Assembly: GCF_031202265.1 (NCBI RefSeq)
Contig: NZ_CP100604.1
Span: 6,988,501-7,052,500, forward strand
From: Bradyrhizobium sp. Ash2021
Lineage (GTDB): Bacteria > Pseudomonadota > Alphaproteobacteria > Rhizobiales > Xanthobacteraceae
Direction: 5' to 3'
DNA: 64,000 nt
Of the stretch, positions 3,758 to 18,379 are shown piece after piece (position 1 is the first letter of the stretch; the number at the start of each line of letters is the position of its first letter). The position numbers and the translations under genes were made by a program. The notes under the pieces are model-generated. The model made no database searches. It saw only the letters and a program-made list of their open reading frames with translations, and had not been told where the DNA came from.

Positions 3758-5116
3758 TCAATGCGACTGCGCCTGCACGTCCAGATAAAGTAGCTTGCAC
3801 ACCGTGGCTTTGGCCGGCTGAACGACATCCGTACTGCACGTCACCGGACTGGGCAGCACCTGCCTTGCTCCGCTGCCGTTGGGCACGTCAGCGGTCAGCC
3901 TGCCGAACAGAATGTAATTTCCCGGACGCTGCACGGCAGGCAGGGAGGCCACGGCGACGGTGGAGCCATCGGCTCGCTTCTTGCCGGCCTCGACCTGCAG
4001 CTTGGTATTGGCGGACCCCACAATGGCGCCCGTCGCCTTGTCGTAAACGGTCAGCTGAAGCGTCCGATCGGACGGATAGTCTTCCGGGATTTTGAGCGGA
4101 ATTTCGACGTCAAGCTTGTCGCTGGTGCTTAACGCGAGGACGCCTGCGTTGGGCCGCTTGCCCGCCACCACCTTGCTGACGCCCAGGAATGCCGGCTTCG
4201 CCATGTCGTTGAGCGGCGCGGAATAGCCAAATTGCTTTGGATCCGGCGTCAATTCGCTCGGGCCGCACTGCCGGCCGCCGCGTTCGGAGGTCGTGTACTG
4301 ACAAACGCGGAGATAGTCGATCTTGAAGGTCTGCGGAAACGCGGCTTCATCAATGCCATGGCGGCCTGCCCATTTGCTGCCGCCGACGGCGAAGTTGAGG
4401 TCGACATGCGCCGGCGGACCGAGCTTTCCGTCGCTGCGCAGCCACTGGTAATTGCGCGTGTACATCAGCTTGCCATCCCAGAACAGCGAAATCTTGTCGG
4501 GCGCCCACACGAAGCCAACAGTGTGCCAGCCCTGATTGAGGTCCTCGCTTCCATACATGTTCTGGAACTTGAGCTCGAAGGAGCGATCGACATAGGTGTA
4601 TTGCTGGGCACTCCAGGGGCCCACCACATTCGAATGCAGCGAGTTCGCCTTGTCCTCAACGCCGTTGATGACAAACTCGAAGATGTCGATCTCCGGCGGA
4701 TGCCAGGTCTTGCCGTCGATATCGTAGTCGGCCTCGAGCCAGAACGCCGGCCAGACTCCCTTTGCGTTGGGCAGGAACACGCGCGCTTCGTAATATCCGT
4801 AATAGAATGTTCGATGGCTGCGGATCATCGCGGATTCGTACAGACTGACCGATCCGGGCATCTTCTTTGCGATCAGGTTGAGCACGCCGTCCGCCACGAC
4901 GTGGCCGTCGCGGTAGCGCTGATTCTCGTCGTTGAAATGATCCATCGTTTCGTTCTGGTAGAGATAACGCGTCGCCCACTTGGTTCGATCGAGCTTGTCG
5001 CCGTTGAACTCGTCAGAAAACACCAGTTCCCATCCCGCCGACCGCGCGGACGTCGAAGCGGCCGTGAGAATCGTCAGTGTCAGGAGAACACGTTTGCAAA
5101 TCTTCGTGAGGATCAT
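3758..5116 (-). CDS. secreted glycoside hydrolase family 16 (beta-glucanase-like)
   Basis: 452 residues with a cleavable signal peptide (about residues 1-27, ending ARSA). The GH16 domain fills about residues 28-275. The catalytic signature EIDIFEF places the nucleophile, assisting Asp and acid/base at about E142, D144 and E147, all present; aromatic residues around VWPAFWLEAD line the usual cleft. About 175 C-terminal residues form a further, probably beta-rich, domain of unknown role containing two Cys near the end. GH16 enzymes cut beta-1,3 or beta-1,3-1,4 glucans and galactans; in rhizobial EPS loci such enzymes (ExoK/ExsH) trim the polymer, which is the likely role here. The exact bond cleaved is not known. 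Confidence 0.85.
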   Translation of the reverse strand: MILTKICKRVLLTLTILTAASTSARSAGWELVFSDEFNGDKLDRTKWATRYLYQNETMDHFNDENQRYRDGHVVADGVLNLIAKKMPGSVSLYESAMIRSHRTFYYGYYEARVFLPNAKGVWPAFWLEADYDIDGKTWHPPEIDIFEFVINGVEDKANSLHSNVVGPWSAQQYTYVDRSFELKFQNMYGSEDLNQGWHTVGFVWAPDKISLFWDGKLMYTRNYQWLRSDGKLGPPAHVDLNFAVGGSKWAGRHGIDEAAFPQTFKIDYLRVCQYTTSERGGRQCGPSELTPDPKQFGYSAPLNDMAKPAFLGVSKVVAGKRPNAGVLALSTSDKLDVEIPLKIPEDYPSDRTLQLTVYDKATGAIVGSANTKLQVEAGKKRADGSTVAVASLPAVQRPGNYILFGRLTADVPNGSGARQVLPSPVTCSTDVVQPAKATVCKLLYLDVQAQSH

Positions 5117-11484: not shown

Positions 11485-13407
11485 GTGTCCGCAGAGCTAT
11501 ATCGAGAACTCGCCTGGCTTCCGAAACCTCCCGCCGATTTCTCGACTCAGTGCAAAGAACTGGCAACCGGTTCCGGCGAGGCCCTCGGAAGGAAAATCAG
11601 AGCGCTGGCGACGCACGCGCTCGATGAGCGGCAGCTGTCGCGGCTGGGTCGGACCATTCGATCGCTGCAACTCAGCGGTGCATCTCTTGCACCGCTCGTG
11701 CCCTTTCGCCTCGGCCTGATTGGCAACGGCACGCTCGATCTGATCGTTCCCGTGCTGGTGGCAACAGCTGCCCGTCACGGTTTTGCGCTCGAATGCGTCA
11801 CGGGCGCCTATGATCAGTTCCTGCAGGATGCGCTGCAGCCGGATTCGCTCCTCAACAAGGCGCGGCCCGACGCGGTGCTGCTTGCGCTCGATCACCGCGG
11901 ACTGTCCCTGCAGCCGTGCCCCGGCAACGAGCAACTGGCCACCGAAGCCGTTGGCGCGGCAATCGGACTTCTTGATTCGATCCGTGCTGGCCTGTCGCGC
12001 AACAGCGGCGCACTGTGCATCCTGCAAACGCTCGCCGCGCCGCCCGAGGGGCTATTCGGATCCTTCGACCGCGCGCTGGCCGGCACGGCCCGCAATCTGG
12101 TCGATCGCATCAATCAGAAGATCTGCCAGGCGGCGCTGCAGTCGACCGACATGGTCCTTGACGTGGCCGGCATCGCCGAGACGGTCGGCCTTGCCGACTG
12201 GCACTCGCCCGCCCAGTGGAATCTGGCGAAACTGCCGTTCGCGGACGCCTTCGTGCCGCTCTACGCCGAGCATGTCACGCGCATCATCGGCGCGCTGCGC
12301 GGCAAGAGCCGCCGTGTTCTCGTGCTCGATCTCGACAACACCGTCTGGGGCGGTGTGATTGGCGACGACGGCATGGAGGGCATCCAGATGGCGCAGGGTG
12401 ATGCGACCGGCGAGGCCCATCTGTCGGTACAGCAGCTCGCGCTGGCATTGCGCGCGCGCGGCATCGTGCTCGCGGTGAGCTCAAAGAACACCGACAACGT
12501 CGCGCGCAGGCCGTTCAAGGAACATCCGGACATGCTGTTGAAGGAAGAGCATATCGCGGTGTTCCAGGCCAATTGGAACGACAAGGCGACCAACATTCGC
12601 GCCATCGCCAAAGAGCTCGCGCTGGGCCTCGATTCCTTCGTCTTCCTGGATGACAATCCGGTCGAACGCGGCCTGATCCGGCAGGAGATTCCGGAGGTCG
12701 CGGTGCCGGAGCTCGATACGGATCCGGCGAGCTATGCCCGCACGCTGGCCGCGGCCGGCTATTTCGAGGCGATCAATTTCTCCGAGGAAGATCGCGCGCG
12801 CGCCGAAATGTATCAGGCCAATGCGCGCCGGCTCAGCCTACAGGGCCAGGCGACCGATCTGAAGTCGTACCTGCAGTCGCTGGAGATGCGCATCGTCTTC
12901 GGCGCCTTCGAGCGGACGACGCGCGCCCGCGTCACCCAGCTCATCAACAAGAGCAATCAGTTCAACCTGACGACGCGCCGTTACACCGAATCCCAGGTCG
13001 AGCAGCTGGAAGGCGACCCCGGTGTCATGACGTTGCATGCGCGGCTGATCGACAAATTCGGCGACAACGGCATCATCTGCGTGATCATCTGCCGCGCGAC
13101 CCGTCGCGACACCTGGACGGTCGACAGCTGGCTGATGAGCTGCCGGGTGCTCGGACGATGCGTCGAACAGGCAGTGCTGGCCGAGATCGTATTGCAGGCG
13201 CGCGCCGCCGGTATCACGACGTTGGAGGGCATCTATCTTCCGACCGACAGAAACGAGATGGTTTGCGAACACTATGGCAAGCTGGGCTTCACCCGCCTCG
13301 AAGATGGCGCCGACGGAAGCAGCCGCTGGGAGCTCCGTACCGACGTTGAGCTGGAAGATCTGCCGATGGCGGTTCAACGTGAGCTGAAGCAGTTCGAGCC
13401 GGCCTGA
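11485..13407 (+). CDS. FkbH-like HAD-family protein (putative glyceryl-ACP-forming type)
   Basis: 640 residues from a GTG at 11485 with a good AAGGAAA ribosome site. The first 250 residues form the FkbH N-terminal domain; the HAD-IIIC domain begins at VLVLDLDNTVWGGVIGDDG, with the nucleophile motif D282-x-D284-x-T. The last 170 residues look like a GNAT fold (TTLEGIYLPTDRNEM, HYGKLGF). Characterised FkbH relatives take 1,3-bisphosphoglycerate, remove phosphate and load the glyceryl group on an acyl carrier protein. An ACP gene lies 2.7 kb downstream on the same strand with an MBOAT acyltransferase between them, so an ACP-bound hydroxyacyl group for polysaccharide decoration is inferred. The acyl group itself is not proven. 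Confidence 0.85.
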   Translation: MSAELYRELAWLPKPPADFSTQCKELATGSGEALGRKIRALATHALDERQLSRLGRTIRSLQLSGASLAPLVPFRLGLIGNGTLDLIVPVLVATAARHGFALECVTGAYDQFLQDALQPDSLLNKARPDAVLLALDHRGLSLQPCPGNEQLATEAVGAAIGLLDSIRAGLSRNSGALCILQTLAAPPEGLFGSFDRALAGTARNLVDRINQKICQAALQSTDMVLDVAGIAETVGLADWHSPAQWNLAKLPFADAFVPLYAEHVTRIIGALRGKSRRVLVLDLDNTVWGGVIGDDGMEGIQMAQGDATGEAHLSVQQLALALRARGIVLAVSSKNTDNVARRPFKEHPDMLLKEEHIAVFQANWNDKATNIRAIAKELALGLDSFVFLDDNPVERGLIRQEIPEVAVPELDTDPASYARTLAAAGYFEAINFSEEDRARAEMYQANARRLSLQGQATDLKSYLQSLEMRIVFGAFERTTRARVTQLINKSNQFNLTTRRYTESQVEQLEGDPGVMTLHARLIDKFGDNGIICVIICRATRRDTWTVDSWLMSCRVLGRCVEQAVLAEIVLQARAAGITTLEGIYLPTDRNEMVCEHYGKLGFTRLEDGADGSSRWELRTDVELEDLPMAVQRELKQFEPA

Positions 13408-13467
13408 TCTGACCAGATAGCCGACAAACTTGCACAAGAATTTCGGAAAGCCTCGAGCCTCACATCC

Positions 13468-14907
13468 ATGAGTCTGACATCGCCCCTGTTTTTTGCGTTT
13501 CTTGCCGCGGTGGTGGTCGCTTTCCACGTCAGCGAATCCGTCGCCTACCGACGGTTCGTGCTCGGGGCCGCGAATACCATCTTCATCGCAAGCTACTTGA
13601 CCGACGTCACGCAGGTGTTGCCGCTGATCGCCTTCTTGGCGCTCGGCTATGTCTGCGTATCCGCGCTTTACCTCCGCCAGTCGTCCCTTGTGCTGGCGTC
13701 GGGCGTCGTCGCGATACTTTGCTGCTATGTATTCCTGAAGCGCTTCTCGTTCTTCGAAGGGTTGGGCCAGCTTCCGTTCCCCTATCTCACCATCGGGCTT
13801 TCCTACATCCTGTTCCGGATCCTGCACATCATGGTCGATGTGCGGTCGGGCGATCTGGCCGAGCGAATTGGTCCGCTGGCGTTTTTTCGCTTCACTTGCA
13901 ACTTCCTGTGCTTCGTCTCAGGTCCGATCCAGCGCTACCAGGATTTCAGCGCGATGGATGGAAAGGCGGCAGTTCAGCTCGACTCGTCGGTGGTCTATTC
14001 GGCGTTTTCCCGAATCGCCACCGGCTATGTGAAATTTGTCATCATTGCCGCGACCGCCGACTACGCCTTTACGTTCCTCAGTCCACACCTGCTGCAGCCG
14101 GCCGGCCTGCCGCTTCTCAAGCTGTGCGCCGTCTATGCGGCCGTCGCATCGCTCTACACGATCTATCTGTATTTCAATTTTTCAGGATACATGGACATCG
14201 TAATCGGCATCGGAACCCTGCTCGGGCAAACATTGCCGGAGAATTTCGACAAGCCGTTCTCGGCGCGCAGCTTCCTCGAATTCTGGCAGCGCTGGCACAT
14301 GACGCTGTCGCAGTGGTTCAAGTTGTATCTCTTCAACCCGCTTCTGATGTTCCTGATGACCTGGCTGCCCTCGCCTGCGCTCACGTCCTATCTGGGTGTG
14401 CTCGCGTTCTTCATCACGTTCGGCGTGATGGGCGTCTGGCACGGTACGACGGCGGTCTTCGTCATTTACGGCCTCCTGATGGGCGCCGGCGCAAGCATCA
14501 ACAAACTCTGGCAAGTGGCCTGCACCGAACGCCTGGGCAAGAAGCGTTATCGCGCGCTTACCGGATCGACCGCCTATATCTACTTTGCGCGGGGCCTCAC
14601 GGTTGCCTATTTTGTGCTCGCACTGACCTGCCTGTGGGTCCCCGAACTGCCTCAATTCACCTATCTGTTGGCGCGGCTTGGCGTCGCCGGCGTCGTGGGC
14701 ACCTTCGTCCTGGTGGCGGCGGCGTTCGGGATGGCGGCGTTGAGCCTGGATCTTGTCCGGGCTCGGATCCGCATCCCGCTCACTCTGTCGATGACCCAGG
14801 GCGGCGAGATCACCAAAAATCTGCACCTGGCAGGCAAGATGATGGCGATCATCGCCGTCGCGACCCTGCTGCACAAGGCTCCGGACTTCGTCTACAAGGC
14901 GTTCTGA
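13468..14907 (+). CDS. MBOAT-family O-acyltransferase (AlgI/DltB-like)
   Basis: 479 residues with about eleven membrane segments. The MBOAT signatures are present: EFWQRWHMTLSQWF with H277, and the catalytic-type His in GVMGVWHGTTA at H325; the NFSGYMDIVIGIG segment is also typical. AlgI and DltB move acyl groups across the inner membrane to exported polymers, DltB from an acyl carrier protein. The flanking FkbH-like and ACP genes suggest that this enzyme takes an ACP-bound acyl group. The next gene starts two bases after its stop, so the two are translationally linked. Confidence 0.85.
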   Translation: MSLTSPLFFAFLAAVVVAFHVSESVAYRRFVLGAANTIFIASYLTDVTQVLPLIAFLALGYVCVSALYLRQSSLVLASGVVAILCCYVFLKRFSFFEGLGQLPFPYLTIGLSYILFRILHIMVDVRSGDLAERIGPLAFFRFTCNFLCFVSGPIQRYQDFSAMDGKAAVQLDSSVVYSAFSRIATGYVKFVIIAATADYAFTFLSPHLLQPAGLPLLKLCAVYAAVASLYTIYLYFNFSGYMDIVIGIGTLLGQTLPENFDKPFSARSFLEFWQRWHMTLSQWFKLYLFNPLLMFLMTWLPSPALTSYLGVLAFFITFGVMGVWHGTTAVFVIYGLLMGAGASINKLWQVACTERLGKKRYRALTGSTAYIYFARGLTVAYFVLALTCLWVPELPQFTYLLARLGVAGVVGTFVLVAAAFGMAALSLDLVRARIRIPLTLSMTQGGEITKNLHLAGKMMAIIAVATLLHKAPDFVYKAF

Positions 14908-14909
14908 AA

Positions 14910-16052
14910 TTGAAATACATCCTTCGGCAGTCGGCGTTGACCTTGTTGTCGTTCGCCTTTCTTTACGCGCTGCTCGCCGGCGCGTCATTCGTCGTCTTTC
15001 CGGATCCATCGAGCGCCGGTCCGCGGGATTTCCAGGCTGCGGAACAAACGCTTTACATGACGGTTCCCAAATATGTCTTCCTCGGCCGCAGCGTGCTGGC
15101 CAACCCGGACAGGAAGATCATCTTGGTGGGGGCATCGAACACCGGAGTCGGATTCCGGCAGAAGCTCGTGCAGTCGAACCTCGGCTGCGCCCAGGTCAGC
15201 AACCTCGCGATGGGGGGCGCCAACATTTCCGAGGTCAGGCAGGTGGTCAATCTGGTCCACGAGGTGCAGAGCGATCAGGAACGCCGGCTGAACACCTTCG
15301 TGATCGGCGTCTGGTTCGGCATGTTCATCGATTCGGATGTGAAGTATGCGGAAGGCGACCGACATCGCGGCGAGACCGATGTCGATATCGAACGCTACCG
15401 GTATGGCTTCTACCGTCGTACGCCGGACGGTCCGGTCGCGGTGTTGCCCGCGAAATGGCTGGACGCGGGCGTCATGACGATCCGACCTTTCCTGCTGCTC
15501 GAGAAGGTCGCGCGCGAGGCCAGGGCCGGCGTCAATCTCGTGCTCACCGGCCGCACCAGCGCCCAACGCACCGATGACGAGCGCGAAAGCGTCGTGATGT
15601 CGGACGCTGAAAAGCTAGAGGCGCTGGAATCCTGGAAGGAAACCATGGGGCGCACGAGCGATATTTCTCCTACCCAGGTCGAAGTCTTGAAACAGACCAT
15701 CCAAGCGCTGCTGGACTCGGGGGAGAAGGTCGTGCTCGTCGACCTTCCGATCCCCGCATGGCATCGCAAAGCAAGCCCCTATCAGCCGAGCTACCGGCGG
15801 GCGCTGACAGACCTGCTTCAGGAGTTTGGCGACCAGCCGAACTTCAGCTCACTGAACATGGACGACCTCGACAACGAGCTGGACTATTCGGACGAGGTGC
15901 ATGCCAAGCGGCATCTGGCCGATGTCTGGTCGACCAGGTTGGCGAGAAAGCTGGATTCGTTCGTCTGCCTGGAGAAACCTGACAAATCTTCACCAAAGGT
16001 CACCACCTTGCGCTCGTCGGCGCAGGTGACAACAGCCGCTCCGGGTAACTGA
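14910..16052 (+). CDS. SGNH-like protein, AlgJ/DltD-type partner of MBOAT
   Basis: About 380 residues. The start is inferred as the TTG at 14910, just after the MBOAT stop; the open frame extends far upstream but only as a shadow of the MBOAT gene. A single N-terminal membrane anchor (about residues 5-30) precedes a periplasmic domain. IILVGASNTGVGF gives the block-I Ser (S76), and SDEVHAKRH near residue 330 gives the Asp-x-x-His pair, so the SGNH catalytic triad looks complete. In alginate and teichoic-acid systems such proteins finish the transfer of the acyl group to the polymer in the periplasm. Family assignment rests on motifs and context. Confidence 0.65.
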   Translation: MKYILRQSALTLLSFAFLYALLAGASFVVFPDPSSAGPRDFQAAEQTLYMTVPKYVFLGRSVLANPDRKIILVGASNTGVGFRQKLVQSNLGCAQVSNLAMGGANISEVRQVVNLVHEVQSDQERRLNTFVIGVWFGMFIDSDVKYAEGDRHRGETDVDIERYRYGFYRRTPDGPVAVLPAKWLDAGVMTIRPFLLLEKVAREARAGVNLVLTGRTSAQRTDDERESVVMSDAEKLEALESWKETMGRTSDISPTQVEVLKQTIQALLDSGEKVVLVDLPIPAWHRKASPYQPSYRRALTDLLQEFGDQPNFSSLNMDDLDNELDYSDEVHAKRHLADVWSTRLARKLDSFVCLEKPDKSSPKVTTLRSSAQVTTAAPGN

Positions 16053-16107
16053 CCGGCCTGCGATCCACGCGCCGGCACCGCCAACACAGTCGACAAAGGA
16101 TGACGCA

Positions 16108-16347
16108 ATGGAAAAGGCCGAAGTCTACAGCAAGCTCACCGGTGTTTTTCGGGACGTATTCGACGAGGACGATCTGGCCCTCTCGCCGCAGACCACCACC
16201 GACGACGTCGACGGCTGGGACAGCCTGTCCCATATCCGTCTTGTGCTGGCTGTCTCCAAGGCCTTCGGCGTGAAATTTTCCGCGTCCGAGATCGGAAGTC
16301 TCAAAAATGTCGGCGAGTTCGCCGATCTGATCGAGAAGAAAGCGTAA
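16108..16347 (+). CDS. acyl carrier protein
   Basis: 79 residues, standard ACP size. The phosphopantetheine attachment site is in DGWDSLSHIRLV, with the Ser of DSL. It lies 55 bases after the SGNH-like gene and seven bases before the VOC gene, so all are probably in one transcript with the FkbH-like and MBOAT genes. It is likely a dedicated carrier for the acyl group made by the FkbH-like protein rather than the fatty-acid ACP, whose usual fab neighbours are absent here. Confidence 0.9.
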   Translation: MEKAEVYSKLTGVFRDVFDEDDLALSPQTTTDDVDGWDSLSHIRLVLAVSKAFGVKFSASEIGSLKNVGEFADLIEKKA

Positions 16348-16353
16348 GAGGAC

Positions 16354-16803
16354 GTGAACCGCGCAGCGAACGACATCGCGCCGGCATCGGCGGCATTGGC
16401 TTTCCATCACCTCGGGCTTGCGGTCGCATCCCCGGAGGAAGCCTTTCGTTACCTTGCGTCACTCGGCTACACCGCGGGAAACACCGTTTTCGACCCGATA
16501 CAGCAGGTTAACCTCGCCATGCGGCATCACCCCGTGATGCCGGACGTCGAAGTGATCTGGCCCGGCGACGGTCCTTCGCCGATCGACAAGCTGATCAAGC
16601 GAAACGGCACCATGATCTATCACCTGTGCTACGCATGCCCCGACGCCGAACAGGCGCTGGGTGCGCTGGCCGCATCCGGGATCGAGATCGTGCCGGTCAG
16701 CGCGCCGGCGCCGGCGGTCCTGTTCGGCGGCCAGAAAGTCTCGTTTCACCACGTTTCCGGTTTCGGCCTGATCGAGATTCTCGAGACCGGCAGCGAGCCC
16801 TAG
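16354..16803 (+). CDS. VOC-family protein (glyoxalase/methylmalonyl-CoA epimerase-like)
   Basis: 149 residues from a GTG at 16354. The two halves FHHLGLAVASPEEAFRYL and YHLCYACPDAEQAL show the paired beta-alpha-beta repeats of the vicinal oxygen chelate fold, and metal ligands are available (His in FHHLG, His in IYHLCY, Glu in IEILE). Position right after the ACP suggests action on an acyl-ACP or acyl-CoA intermediate, for example epimerisation. That step is inference; the motif set only supports the fold. Confidence 0.7.
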   Translation: MNRAANDIAPASAALAFHHLGLAVASPEEAFRYLASLGYTAGNTVFDPIQQVNLAMRHHPVMPDVEVIWPGDGPSPIDKLIKRNGTMIYHLCYACPDAEQALGALAASGIEIVPVSAPAPAVLFGGQKVSFHHVSGFGLIEILETGSEP

Positions 16804-16833
16804 AGGCCGATTCAGCTAGCCCTGGCAGATCGC

Positions 16834-17295
16834 ATGAACCACGATTACACGTCACGCCATTTCGGCCACGTCAGCCGCATGACTTGCAGCTTGGCGCTCG
16901 GCACCCTGGTTCTCGCATCGGGAGCGCAGGCTCAGGTCGTCGGCTACGGAAGATCATCGGCGCCAATGTACGGAGGAACCGGCGTGTCGCCGACGCCAGC
17001 GAATCCTTTCCCACCGATGAAGGGTACATATGCCCCCAGCCATAAGTCGGCGGACGGAACGGCCTGCATATCGGTCCATCCATCTACGCGTCCGCAAATC
17101 ATCAATCCGAAGATCATCGATCAGATCGTGACCGTGAACAACACTTGCGGCCAATCCATCAACGTTCAGGTCTGCTATGTCGGCAGCTCGGACTGCATCA
17201 CGGTTGCGCTGAGCGGCTATCAGAAGTTGCAAAGGATCCTCGGCATCTCTGCGGGTTCGACCTCATTCCGCTACGAGTACCGCGAGTTATATTGA
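16834..17295 (+). CDS. hypothetical secreted protein
   Basis: 153 residues. A signal peptide covers about residues 1-34 (hydrophobic MTCSLALGTLVLASG, ending AQA). The mature part is short, contains four Cys (CISVH, NNTCGQS, VQVCYVG, SDCITV) that could form two disulphides, and ends in a Tyr-rich tail. No family was recognised. It sits at the end of the acylation module, 30 bases after the VOC gene, so it may be an exported accessory protein of the same transcript. Confidence 0.55.
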   Translation: MNHDYTSRHFGHVSRMTCSLALGTLVLASGAQAQVVGYGRSSAPMYGGTGVSPTPANPFPPMKGTYAPSHKSADGTACISVHPSTRPQIINPKIIDQIVTVNNTCGQSINVQVCYVGSSDCITVALSGYQKLQRILGISAGSTSFRYEYRELY

Positions 17296-17395
17296 TGGCG
17301 CGTGCAACACCAACCGCAGTCCTTGCGAGGTCCCACGTGGTGGAAATCTACCGCACCGAATTCAGCACCTTCACTCGAATCGAGCCTTGAGCCGC

Positions 17396-18379
17396 ATGTC
17401 CAGCCCCACTCAGGCCTTCGTATTCGGAGGTGCCGGCTTCATCGGAACACATCTGATGAACCGGCTCCTCGCGTCCGGAAGCTACCATCGGATCGTCGCC
17501 CTCGATATCGGCAAGCCGAGGACCCAGGTTGCCGGCGTCGAATATGTCCATCACGATATCCGCGAGCCCGTCGACCCAAAGCACGCACGAGGAGCGCCCG
17601 CCGACATTTTCAATCTGGCGGCAATCCACACCACGCCGGGCCACCCGGAGGGCGATTATTACTACACCAACGTCCTCGGTGCGGTGAACGTGTGCCGCTT
17701 TGCCAAGGAAACCGGCAGCCGGAACATCACCTTCACCAGTTCGATATCGATCTACGGTCCGAGCGAAGCGCCGCTCGACGAGGATTCGCAGCCCGCGCCG
17801 GTCAGTGCCTACGGGCGTTCCAAGCTCTCGGCCGAAGCCATCCATCTGCTGTGGCAATCGGAGGACCCGGCGAGGCGGCTCACGATCGTTCGCCCCGCCG
17901 TTATCTACGGCCTTTACGAGCAGGGGAATTTCACGCGGCTGTCGAGACTGCTGGAAAGACGGGCTTTCGTCTATCCCGGCCGAAGCGACACGATCAAATC
18001 ATGCGGCTATGTGAAGGACCTGGTCTCGTCGATGCTTTTCATGGCGGCTCGCAACGACGGCGTATCGATCTACAATTTCTGCTACGAGCACCGCTACACG
18101 ATCAGCGAGATCTGCGCGGCCTTCTCTCAAGCAGCCGGCTACAGGAAGCCGACGCGGACCATACCGGTCTGGTTCATGAATCTCGCGGTCCTTCCGTTCG
18201 AGATGCTGCACAAGGTCGGCATCAAGACCGGGATCAATCGCGACCGCATCCGGAAATTATGGTTCTCCACGAACATCCTGCCGAAGCGCCTGGTCGCCAG
18301 CGGGTTTAGGTTCGAATACGACGTGGTAAGCTCGCTGGACGAGTGGAAGCACGAGTCCCGTGTGAAAGACTTTGATTGA
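17396..18379 (+). CDS. NAD-dependent epimerase/dehydratase (extended SDR)
   Basis: About 327 residues from the ATG at 17396 (an in-frame TTG at 17387 is an alternative). The Rossmann motif FVFGGAGFIGTHLM, the Ser of FTSSISIYGPSE and the YxxxK of VSAYGRSKLSAE are all present, so the enzyme should be active. It belongs to the nucleotide-sugar epimerase/dehydratase group and probably makes a sugar donor for the locus polysaccharide; the sugar is not predictable. About 620 bases without a gene follow. Confidence 0.8.
   Translation: MSSPTQAFVFGGAGFIGTHLMNRLLASGSYHRIVALDIGKPRTQVAGVEYVHHDIREPVDPKHARGAPADIFNLAAIHTTPGHPEGDYYYTNVLGAVNVCRFAKETGSRNITFTSSISIYGPSEAPLDEDSQPAPVSAYGRSKLSAEAIHLLWQSEDPARRLTIVRPAVIYGLYEQGNFTRLSRLLERRAFVYPGRSDTIKSCGYVKDLVSSMLFMAARNDGVSIYNFCYEHRYTISEICAAFSQAAGYRKPTRTIPVWFMNLAVLPFEMLHKVGIKTGINRDRIRKLWFSTNILPKRLVASGFRFEYDVVSSLDEWKHESRVKDFD

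What the first reader, a model, noticed from the sequence alone, without database searches (positions are those of the whole stretch)
11485..16803. FkbH-MBOAT-SGNH-ACP-VOC module inside a polysaccharide locus: possible ACP-dependent hydroxyacyl (glyceryl) decoration
Five consecutive plus-strand genes with tight spacing encode an FkbH-like HAD protein, an MBOAT acyltransferase, an SGNH-like membrane-anchored protein with a complete triad, a dedicated ACP and a VOC protein. Characterised FkbH proteins load glyceryl groups from 1,3-bisphosphoglycerate on ACP, and DltB-type MBOATs take acyl groups from a carrier protein and pass them across the membrane. Combined, they suggest a route by which a three-carbon hydroxyacyl group is put on an exported polysaccharide, with the VOC protein perhaps altering the acyl group first. 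I know of no described system with exactly this set. The motifs are seen directly; the chemistry is inferred.
Basis: partly seen in the sequence, partly recalled or inferred. Interest (0 to 1): 0.75.

Follow-up and report, generated by a model that had tools for sequence, protein, structure and literature searches.

The report
Carrier-fed glyceryl decoration of bacterial slime
Five neighbouring genes in a soil bacterium look like a machine that loads a small three-carbon acid onto a carrier protein, may reshape it there, and passes it across the membrane onto the exported sugar coat; related sets occur in other bacteria with one part swapped.

Summary
In detail: FkbH, MBOAT, SGNH-like, ACP and VOC genes lie in a row (gaps 60, 2, 55, 6 bp) inside a Bradyrhizobium exopolysaccharide locus. 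Beside the window I found 25 related loci: FkbH+MBOAT+SGNH+ACP is kept in 24; the other is cut by its contig end. The fifth position is exchangeable: 16 loci have VOC, 9 have a MaoC hydratase (with an SDR in 8), none has both. FkbH-ACP-MBOAT neighbourhoods recur across Pseudomonadota, and Sinorhizobium meliloti pSymB has the same five kinds of gene (SGNH judged by eye) near capsule genes. The MBOAT ends in FVY[KR]AF, an 'acyl shuttle' motif, in all 22 loci plus the window; the SGNH model's best Foldseek matches by E-value are DltD. Best reading: a Dlt-like relay with FkbH in place of DltA, carrying glyceryl (VOC type, perhaps epimerised) or possibly lactyl (MaoC-SDR type) to exported glycan. 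A 2025 paper says non-Dlt MBOAT/SGNH pathways lack a carrier protein; these loci look like exceptions. Acyl group, acceptor and VOC reaction are inferred, not shown.

The parts
11485..13407 (+). FkbH-type HAD protein with N-terminal extension: proposed loader of the ACP (glyceryl from 1,3-bisphosphoglycerate). HAD motif DLDNT from residue 282; conserved Cys553 in SCR
   Evidence: TIGR01686 292.8 bits over cut-off, TIGR01681 65 bits; PF21211 FkbH_N 20.5 bits, below its cut-off 27; nearest solved structure 3slr, E 4.7e-55; motifs
13468..14907 (+). MBOAT membrane acyltransferase: proposed acyl transfer from ACP to its own C-terminal Tyr476 (FVYKAF); His277 and His325 conserved
   Evidence: PF03062 47.5 bits; FVY[KR]AF at the C-terminus in own gene and 22 of 22 loci; model pLDDT 78.3, Foldseek best three DltB, E 3.6e-14 to 9.9e-14; invariant H277, H325, Y476 in 20 sequences
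14910..16052 (+). membrane-anchored SGNH-like protein, DltD-like fold: proposed final transferase (Ser76-Asp328-His331)
16108..16347 (+). acyl carrier protein, phosphopantetheine Ser39 in WDSL
   Evidence: PF00550 31.3 bits over cut-off; WDSL in own gene and 22 of 22 loci
16354..16803 (+). VOC (glyoxalase fold) protein: proposed tailoring enzyme on the ACP-bound group, perhaps a C2 epimerase; metal-type residues His19 (or 18), Glu66, His90, Glu141
   Evidence: PF13669 55 bits; TIGR03081 34.7 bits, far below cut-off 114.95; residues invariant in 21 sequences; nearest solved structures 2qh0/3hdp
16834..17295 (+). small exported-looking Cys-containing protein (153 aa), neighbour of the VOC-type module in Bradyrhizobium; role unknown, possibly accessory
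   Evidence: phmmer homologue in 13 of 13 Bradyrhizobium loci, upstream of FkbH in L011; none found in the other 9 loci; no Pfam/NCBIfam family

Best explanation
The module is a Dlt-like transmembrane acyl relay for an exported polysaccharide, with FkbH in the place of the D-alanine ligase DltA. Step 1 (inferred from the family): FkbH takes 1,3-bisphospho-D-glycerate, removes the phosphate and loads D-glyceryl on the phosphopantetheine arm of the dedicated ACP. Step 2 (inferred, least sure): VOC acts on glyceryl-ACP, most likely by taking the C2 proton with its metal site and re-protonating it (D- to L-glyceryl); in the sister modules the same slot holds MaoC hydratase plus SDR, which could dehydrate glyceryl-ACP to pyruvyl-ACP and reduce it to lactyl-ACP. 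Step 3 (inferred from motif and precedent): the MBOAT moves the acyl group from the ACP to Tyr476 of its own periplasmic C-terminal FVYKAF. Step 4 (inferred from motif, fold and precedent): the DltD-like SGNH protein takes it on Ser76 and puts it as an ester on the exopolysaccharide made by the surrounding genes. Shown here: gene set, conserved residues, conserved linkage, slot exchange, predicted folds. Not shown: any chemistry.
For: Conserved unit: 24 of 25 related loci have FkbH+MBOAT+SGNH+ACP, the other is cut by its contig. Slot exchange: VOC in 16, MaoC in 9, never both and never neither, including one Bradyrhizobium (L064) with a fused MaoC-SDR and no VOC. Acyl-shuttle hexapeptide on the MBOAT in own and 22 of 22 loci; motif and relay as in PMC12148441. 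SGNH: Ser/Asp/His invariant in 28 sequences, DltD best by Foldseek E-value. FkbH over its curated cut-off; FkbH domains load glyceryl from 1,3-bisphosphoglycerate on carrier domains (PMC8949500 passage). VOC tied to FkbH: 5 of 398 genomes have this VOC and all 5 have FkbH (62 of 398 do); 3 of the 5 within 5 kb (at most 9 VOC candidates scored per genome). VOC lies near FkbH also without an MBOAT in view, in L028 and L071 and, with a VOC of another subfamily, L074, so its substrate is more likely the carrier-bound group than the polysaccharide. FkbH-MBOAT linkage: 21 of 94 FkbH places within 10 kb, about 1.06 expected by uniform placement; ACP profile hit in 20 of these 21 loci, five of them weak at 23-30 bits. 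L-glyceryl is a known polysaccharide substituent (gellan, PMC9737242 passage). Polysaccharide genes around it in the window, L018, L023, L025 and S. meliloti.
Against: No chemistry was tested and I know no structure of this polysaccharide. The MBOAT's likeness to DltB is generic: the genome's other MBOAT scores alike, and DltB is the only bacterial MBOAT in the structure matches shown to me. VIA-align ranks esterases such as TesA above DltD by Z (15-17 over about 165-171 residues against 14.3 over 257), and Foldseek TM-scores to DltD are about 0.4. The VOC residues are glyoxalase-like (position 66 is Glu where methylmalonyl-CoA epimerase has Gln, and its Glu48 aligns near Asn53, roles recalled), so epimerisation is a guess. 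Uniform placement understates chance, as both gene types favour biosynthetic loci. In 2 of the 5 VOC genomes (G061, G114) VOC is beside ntrC-type regulators, not FkbH. The VOCs of S. meliloti, SC52 and Paroceanicella are not of the window's subfamily (25 bits, no hit, no hit at E <= 10). An extended SDR gene (PF01370, 17387-18379) follows the module in all 13 Bradyrhizobium loci, so a reductase acting on the acyl group cannot be excluded there either. The module is accessory: 16 of 242 Bradyrhizobium genomes incl. own, own alone of 60 relatives. Two copies look damaged (L062; L068).
Confidence: 0.55

Rival explanations
1. Same relay, other cargo: VOC (or MaoC-SDR in the sister loci) converts glyceryl-ACP so that lactyl, pyruvyl or another three-carbon group, not glyceryl, is what reaches the polysaccharide in the window too.
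For: VOC and MaoC occupy one slot and exclude each other in 25 of 25 loci, as expected if they reach a like end by different means; the VOC metal-type residues suit enediolate chemistry; an extended SDR gene lies just downstream in all 13 Bradyrhizobium loci and could be the reductant. A DH domain beside FkbH occurs in a polyketide module (OocJ, DH-MT-FkbH-ACP, PMC4552970 passage), but its authors judge that module not functional; lactate made this way in bryostatin is recalled only.
Against: VOC alone brings no reductant; the downstream SDR matches sugar-epimerase families best (PF01370). Slot exchange is equally what different end products would give. VOCs in L028, L071 and L074 sit beside a methyltransferase, which suits a glyceryl group kept with its hydroxyls.
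Confidence: 0.2
2. MBOAT and SGNH are an ordinary acetyl-CoA-fed O-acetylation pair (AlgI/AlgJ or PatA/PatB kind), and FkbH-ACP-VOC make an unrelated small acyl product in the same locus.
For: The shuttle motif is shared with acyl-CoA-fed MBOATs such as PatA; the genome's second MBOAT ends FIYFRF too. FkbH and MBOAT can share a cluster without sharing a task: in suomilide synthesis an FkbH domain loads glycerate for the peptide while an MBOAT is proposed to acylate a sugar (PMC13122637 passages; PMC10143770 passages). FkbH-ACP sets with no MBOAT within 10 kb exist (9 such loci fetched, ACP in 9 of 9, some near contig ends).
Against: FkbH, ACP, MBOAT and SGNH stay together in 24 of 25 loci (one cut) over alphaproteobacteria and, by record titles, beta- and gammaproteobacteria, with changed gene order; FkbH and MBOAT pair in 21 of 94 places in a wider sample.
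Confidence: 0.12
3. The relay modifies a lipid, a lipopolysaccharide or a surface protein rather than the exopolysaccharide of this locus.
For: SGNH acyltransferases act on several envelope polymers (PMC12148441). L028 pairs FkbH-ACP-VOC with a protein that weakly resembles VexE (31.2 bits, cut-off 1200), and L074 with one that looks alike by eye.
Against: In all 13 Bradyrhizobium loci the module lies between Wzy-like and GT2 genes on one side and the tyrosine-kinase-like gene on the other; in S. meliloti it lies some 5 kb from capsule genes; in L023 beside flippase-type, priming and pyruvyl transferase genes.
Confidence: 0.1

Closest known systems
Dlt pathway (DltA, DltC, DltB, DltX, DltD; D-alanylation of teichoic acids)
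   Same: dedicated carrier protein, MBOAT, membrane-anchored SGNH protein of DltD-like fold, shuttle hexapeptide FxYxxF
   Different: loader is FkbH, no adenylating ligase among the 20 window proteins scanned by Pfam; the hexapeptide is on the MBOAT itself instead of a DltX microprotein; Gram-negative exopolysaccharide locus; extra VOC or MaoC-SDR
MBOAT/SGNH O-acetylation pairs (PatA/PatB, AlgI/AlgJ/AlgX, WssH/I)
   Same: MBOAT with its own C-terminal FxYxxF plus separate SGNH protein
   Different: those use acyl-CoA and lack a carrier protein according to PMC12148441; here a dedicated ACP and its loader are linked to the pair
FkbH-ACP glyceryl loading in polyketide and peptide synthesis (vioprolide, cystomanamides, suomilide; passages)
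   Same: FkbH subfamily domain over its cut-off next to a carrier protein
   Different: no PKS/NRPS among the module's genes; product apparently goes to a membrane acyl relay
Gellan, an exopolysaccharide with L-glyceryl and acetyl groups (PMC9737242 passages)
   Same: a glyceryl ester on an exported polysaccharide, of the L hand that an epimerase would give
   Different: the passage names only 'glyceryltransferase activities', no gene; whether Sphingomonas has this gene set was not tested
Campylobacter jejuni cj1302 (fkbH-domain gene, PMC7099621 passage)
   Same: FkbH gene compared among strains in a study of flagellar glycans
   Different: its neighbours were not tested here; methylated glyceroyl groups on its sugars are recalled, not seen in a call
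S. meliloti pSymB set VOC-MBOAT-SGNH-like-ACP-FkbH near capsule genes
   Same: the same five kinds of gene, MBOAT ending FLYQGF
   Different: other gene order; SGNH by eye only, not matched by the window family's profile; VOC of another subfamily (25 bits); ABC-type capsule genes nearby

Membership tests
Dlt D-alanylation pathway | DltA-type adenylating ligase loads the carrier | tested here: not met
   no AMP-binding family among 20 window proteins scanned, the module included; FkbH stands in its place. Rest of the window not scanned
Dlt D-alanylation pathway | MBOAT is DltB (TIGR04091 over cut-off) | tested here: not met
   175.4 bits against cut-off 375; the genome's other MBOAT scores 172.3
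Dlt D-alanylation pathway | SGNH protein with DltD fold | tested here: inconclusive
Dlt D-alanylation pathway | D-alanine carried to teichoic acid | not testable with these tools
   needs biochemistry; Gram-negative host
MBOAT/SGNH polymer acyltransferases | MBOAT with C-terminal FxYxxF shuttle motif | tested here: met
   FVY[KR]AF in own and 22 of 22 loci; definition from PMC12148441
MBOAT/SGNH polymer acyltransferases | separate SGNH protein with Ser/Asp/His | tested here: met
   S76, D328, H331 invariant in 28 sequences, gene 2 bp downstream; active-site geometry not measured
MBOAT/SGNH polymer acyltransferases | no carrier protein in the pathway (acyl-CoA donor), as stated for non-Dlt members | tested here: not met
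   ACP linked in 25 of 25 loci; statement in PMC12148441 Discussion. The donor itself cannot be tested here
FkbH glyceryl loaders | TIGR01686 FkbH domain over cut-off | tested here: met
   292.8 bits against 146.65
FkbH glyceryl loaders | HAD DxDxT motif and conserved Cys | tested here: met
   DLDNT from 282 and Cys553; by pattern anywhere in the ORF, D.D[NGA][TV] in 63 and SC[RK] in 66 of 67 relatives' ORFs, 12 of these being second copies of the same contigs. That this Cys is the catalytic one is recalled
FkbH glyceryl loaders | uses 1,3-bisphosphoglycerate and loads glyceryl | not testable with these tools
   family function from PMC8949500 passage
Methylmalonyl-CoA epimerase | TIGR03081 over cut-off | tested here: not met
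   34.7 bits against 114.95
Methylmalonyl-CoA epimerase | His/Gln/His/Glu metal site plus Glu48 base (recalled) | tested here: not met
   Gln replaced by Glu66; Glu48 aligns near Asn53, in a gapped stretch

The most novel reading that the evidence does not exclude
Gram-negative bacteria have a whole class of carrier-protein-fed MBOAT/SGNH pathways, built on FkbH instead of an adenylating ligase, that draw acyl groups straight from a glycolytic intermediate and carry an exchangeable tailoring slot (VOC, or MaoC with SDR, or none) which sets whether glyceryl, epimerised glyceryl, lactyl or another small hydroxyacyl group decorates the exported glycan. This would break the stated rule that only Dlt uses a carrier protein.
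Probability: 0.5. Interest if true: 0.82.

Novelty: new variant of a known kind. Interest (0 to 1): 0.68.

Why it matters
Small acyl groups such as glyceryl set the texture of bacterial slimes: L-glyceryl weakens the gel of gellan (PMC9104527 passage). How a glyceryl group is activated and moved outside the cell for a polysaccharide I did not find described (searches; passages name no gene). If true, the source would be glycolysis itself (1,3-bisphosphoglycerate), the carrier rule for MBOAT/SGNH pathways would need amending, and the tailoring slot would let one predict the substituent from the genes. A like set lies near capsule genes in S. meliloti, a genetically easy legume symbiont, so it can be tested soon.

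Tried and rejected
Tried and rejected or without result. (1) DltB likeness of the MBOAT as evidence for a carrier donor: rejected after the control, since the genome's other MBOAT scores the same. (2) VOC as a methylmalonyl-CoA epimerase: rejected on score and residues. (3) VOC as a glyoxalase making lactoyl-ACP from methylglyoxal: thought of, not tested; disfavoured because FkbH would be idle. (4) Phage carriage: one scan of viral contigs with the SGNH profile found no relative. (5) Gellan/sphingan glyceryl genes as a named precedent: one search listed one peptide-synthesis review, nine unrelated papers, two reviews; passages of the latter two confirm L-glyceryl and 'glyceryltransferase activities' but give no gene. 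No Sphingomonas genome was looked up by name. (6) The Dlt shuttle paper (10.1038/s41564-023-01411-0) is not held, so its content is recalled or second-hand through PMC12148441. (7) Paper search was badly framed: none of its 40 listed papers has FkbH. (8) Solved-structure search with the SGNH profile: no match at E <= 1. (9) Search for Bradyrhizobium exopolysaccharide with lactate or glycerate substituents: seven papers listed, none read.

Counts and what was left out. Of the 62 genomes with an FkbH match I passed 57 to the MBOAT search, leaving out own (searched) and four under the curated cut-off (G057, G060, G119, G338). The 94 FkbH places leave out own, two partial and four weak places; one MBOAT fragment (G081 C223) was left out. 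The FkbH tree drops L026, L030, L032 and L035, whose sequences did not match my motif pattern, and L021, which has no FkbH on its contig; rows L040 and L045 sit on a branch of length 4.67 and may be cut at a wrong motif. In the 21 FkbH-MBOAT loci (L026, L036-L055) the strict FxYxxF end is present in 15, in 18 if a conservative first or last residue is allowed; L037, L053 and L055 lack it in the frame seen. MaoC profile hits are in 9 of these 21 (35-105 bits) and in 5 of the 9 FkbH loci without near MBOAT; Pfam was run on six of these 14 (L030, L034, L040, L041, L046, L053) and confirmed MaoC in all six; in L036 it is on the other strand, three genes off. SGNH partners in the wider set were judged by eye in five loci (L041, L042, L044, L050, L053) and by profile in two (L036, L046); the rest were not checked. 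Of 78 plasmid records with an FkbH match I opened four by annotation (H1, H2, H4, H6): VOC in three, MBOAT in two, MaoC-SDR in one; then three S. meliloti strains.

Full report
What is there. The window is from a Bradyrhizobium-like genome of 9.7 Mb (names of relatives; the nearest named locus is B. erythrophlei GAS478, 98% over the SGNH protein). Five plus-strand genes, 11485-16803, encode FkbH (640 aa), MBOAT (479 aa), an SGNH-like protein (380 aa), an ACP (79 aa) and a VOC protein (149 aa), with gaps of 60, 2, 55 and 6 bp. Families: TIGR01686 292.8 bits, PF03062 47.5, none for SGNH, PF00550 31.3, PF13669 55. Around them lie glycosyltransferase genes (PF01755, PF13692, PF00535), an Acyl_transf_3 gene, an extended SDR of sugar-epimerase type (PF01370) and a Poly_export gene, plus, by my reading alone, a Wzy-like and a tyrosine-kinase-like gene: an exopolysaccharide locus.

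Conserved unit. A profile of the SGNH protein (A1) found 22 loci in the named genome collection: 13 Bradyrhizobium and 9 others, by record titles Rhodocyclales, Rhizobacter, Rhodoferax, Burkholderiaceae and other Betaproteobacteria, one 'Pseudomonadota' (L021) and one 'Gammaproteobacteria' (L025). FkbH, MBOAT, SGNH and ACP are together in 21 of 22; in L021 the contig ends first. A genus search found the SGNH protein in 16 of 242 Bradyrhizobium genomes, own included; 15 loci were fetched, of which 12 have the contig lengths of loci already seen and three are new (L062, L064, L068), all with the core. A first relatives search found it only in own among 60. So the module is an accessory trait. 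Two of the new copies look damaged (L062: one stop in the SGNH frame; L068: MBOAT in two ORFs).

An exchangeable slot. In 15 Bradyrhizobium loci and the window the order is FkbH-MBOAT-SGNH-ACP-VOC. In L017-L024 it is MBOAT-SGNH-ACP-MaoC-SDR-FkbH, without VOC (an extra ORF before FkbH in L017; L021 ends after MaoC). L025 is MBOAT-SGNH-VOC-ACP-FkbH. L064, a Bradyrhizobium, has no VOC but a 512-aa MaoC+SDR fusion after the ACP. Of 25 loci beside the window: VOC 16, MaoC 9, both 0, neither 0. On the FkbH tree the window, 13 Bradyrhizobium, L017-L020, L022-L024 and L025 form one 22-row group (SH-aLRT 99), and L025 falls with the MaoC-type rows (88, moderate), so the slot seems to change on one backbone. 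Of 23 MaoC ORFs in all loci, 21 keep a GDx[NS]P[LI]H motif by my pattern; L041 and L053 do not (meaning of the motif recalled).

Wider survey. In 398 genomes of the phylum, own included, 62 have FkbH (58 over the cut-off). MBOAT occurs in 40 of the 57 I searched. Of 94 FkbH places, 21 lie within 10 kb of an MBOAT, 18 on the same strand; uniform placement would give about 1.06, which understates chance because both gene types favour biosynthetic loci. In these 21 loci an ACP is found in 20 (five weak) and MaoC in 9. Five of them checked by eye also have an SGNH-looking neighbour (GSS, GAS or GPS near the N-terminus, a D/N..H towards the C-terminus). The window's VOC subfamily occurs in 5 of 398 genomes; all five have FkbH, against 62 of 398 overall (hypergeometric 0.0005 for the four other than own; two of these are of one genus, so not independent). 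In three it lies within 5 kb of FkbH; in G061 and G114 it lies by ntrC-type regulators instead.

Named relatives. tblastn of FkbH against plasmid records gave 78 with a match; I opened four. S. meliloti pSymB has VOC, MBOAT, an SGNH-looking protein (annotated 'TonB-dependent receptor'; GGS and DPGH by eye), ACP and FkbH, some 5 kb from capsule genes that include RkpR. The 6.1 kb stretch is held to 80% or more in 39 of 41 matching records, strains 1021, 2011 and Rm41 among them. In the 1021 record the FkbH frame is in two pieces; 2011 and Rm41 have it whole. A Rhodobacteraceae plasmid has ACP-FkbH-MBOAT-SGNH-looking-VOC. Paroceanicella has ACP-FkbH-methyltransferase-VOC without an MBOAT in view, and Niveispirillum FkbH-ACP-WcbI-MaoC/SDR. 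The two MBOATs end FLYQGF and FIYFNF. The VOCs here are of other subfamilies: 25 bits to the window's VOC profile in S. meliloti, no hit at E <= 10 in the other two. So VOC-fold proteins meet FkbH more than once.

Known or new. The parts are known; the assembly is a new variant of the MBOAT/SGNH kind. My ten paper searches (open-licence PMC papers only, poorly framed) listed no description of it. The two papers holding both FkbH and MBOAT concern suomilide-type peptides, where the two act on different parts of the molecule (passages). A related hint is the fkbH-domain gene cj1302 of C. jejuni in a study of flagellar glycans (PMC7099621 passage).

Confidence. Gene set and conservation: near certain. 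Carrier-fed relay to an exported glycan: about 0.75. Glyceryl (either hand) as cargo in the window: about 0.55. VOC as epimerase: about 0.35.

Noticed in passing
window 16834-17295 (+): A 153-aa protein with a signal-like N-terminus and five Cys, no Pfam/NCBIfam family, follows VOC; homologues in 13 of 13 Bradyrhizobium loci (before FkbH in L011), none found in the other 9 loci.
   Followed up: partly
L078 (S. meliloti 1021 pSymB, about 16187-18069): The FkbH frame is in two pieces in the 1021 record but whole in 2011 and Rm41: a strain difference or a sequencing error in the reference.
   Followed up: partly
L075:7412-8641: The SGNH-looking protein of the S. meliloti set is annotated 'TonB-dependent receptor', probably a wrong name (no Pfam or NCBIfam family).
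   Followed up: partly
L062 and L068: Two Bradyrhizobium copies look damaged: one stop in the SGNH frame and MBOAT in two ORFs.
   Followed up: no
L040:12965-16054 (-): A 1030-aa ORF holds a MaoC domain and an FkbH-like region in one frame, perhaps a natural fusion of hydratase and loader.
   Followed up: no
L028 and L071: VOC beside a SAM methyltransferase and near FkbH, with no MBOAT in view, suggesting O-methylated glyceryl products by another transferase.
   Followed up: partly
L072 and L073: VOC relatives beside ntrC-type regulators, away from FkbH though the genomes have FkbH elsewhere.
   Followed up: partly
window 3758-5116 (-): A glycosyl hydrolase family 16 protein (PF00722) at the edge of the exopolysaccharide locus, perhaps a polysaccharide-trimming enzyme.
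   Followed up: no
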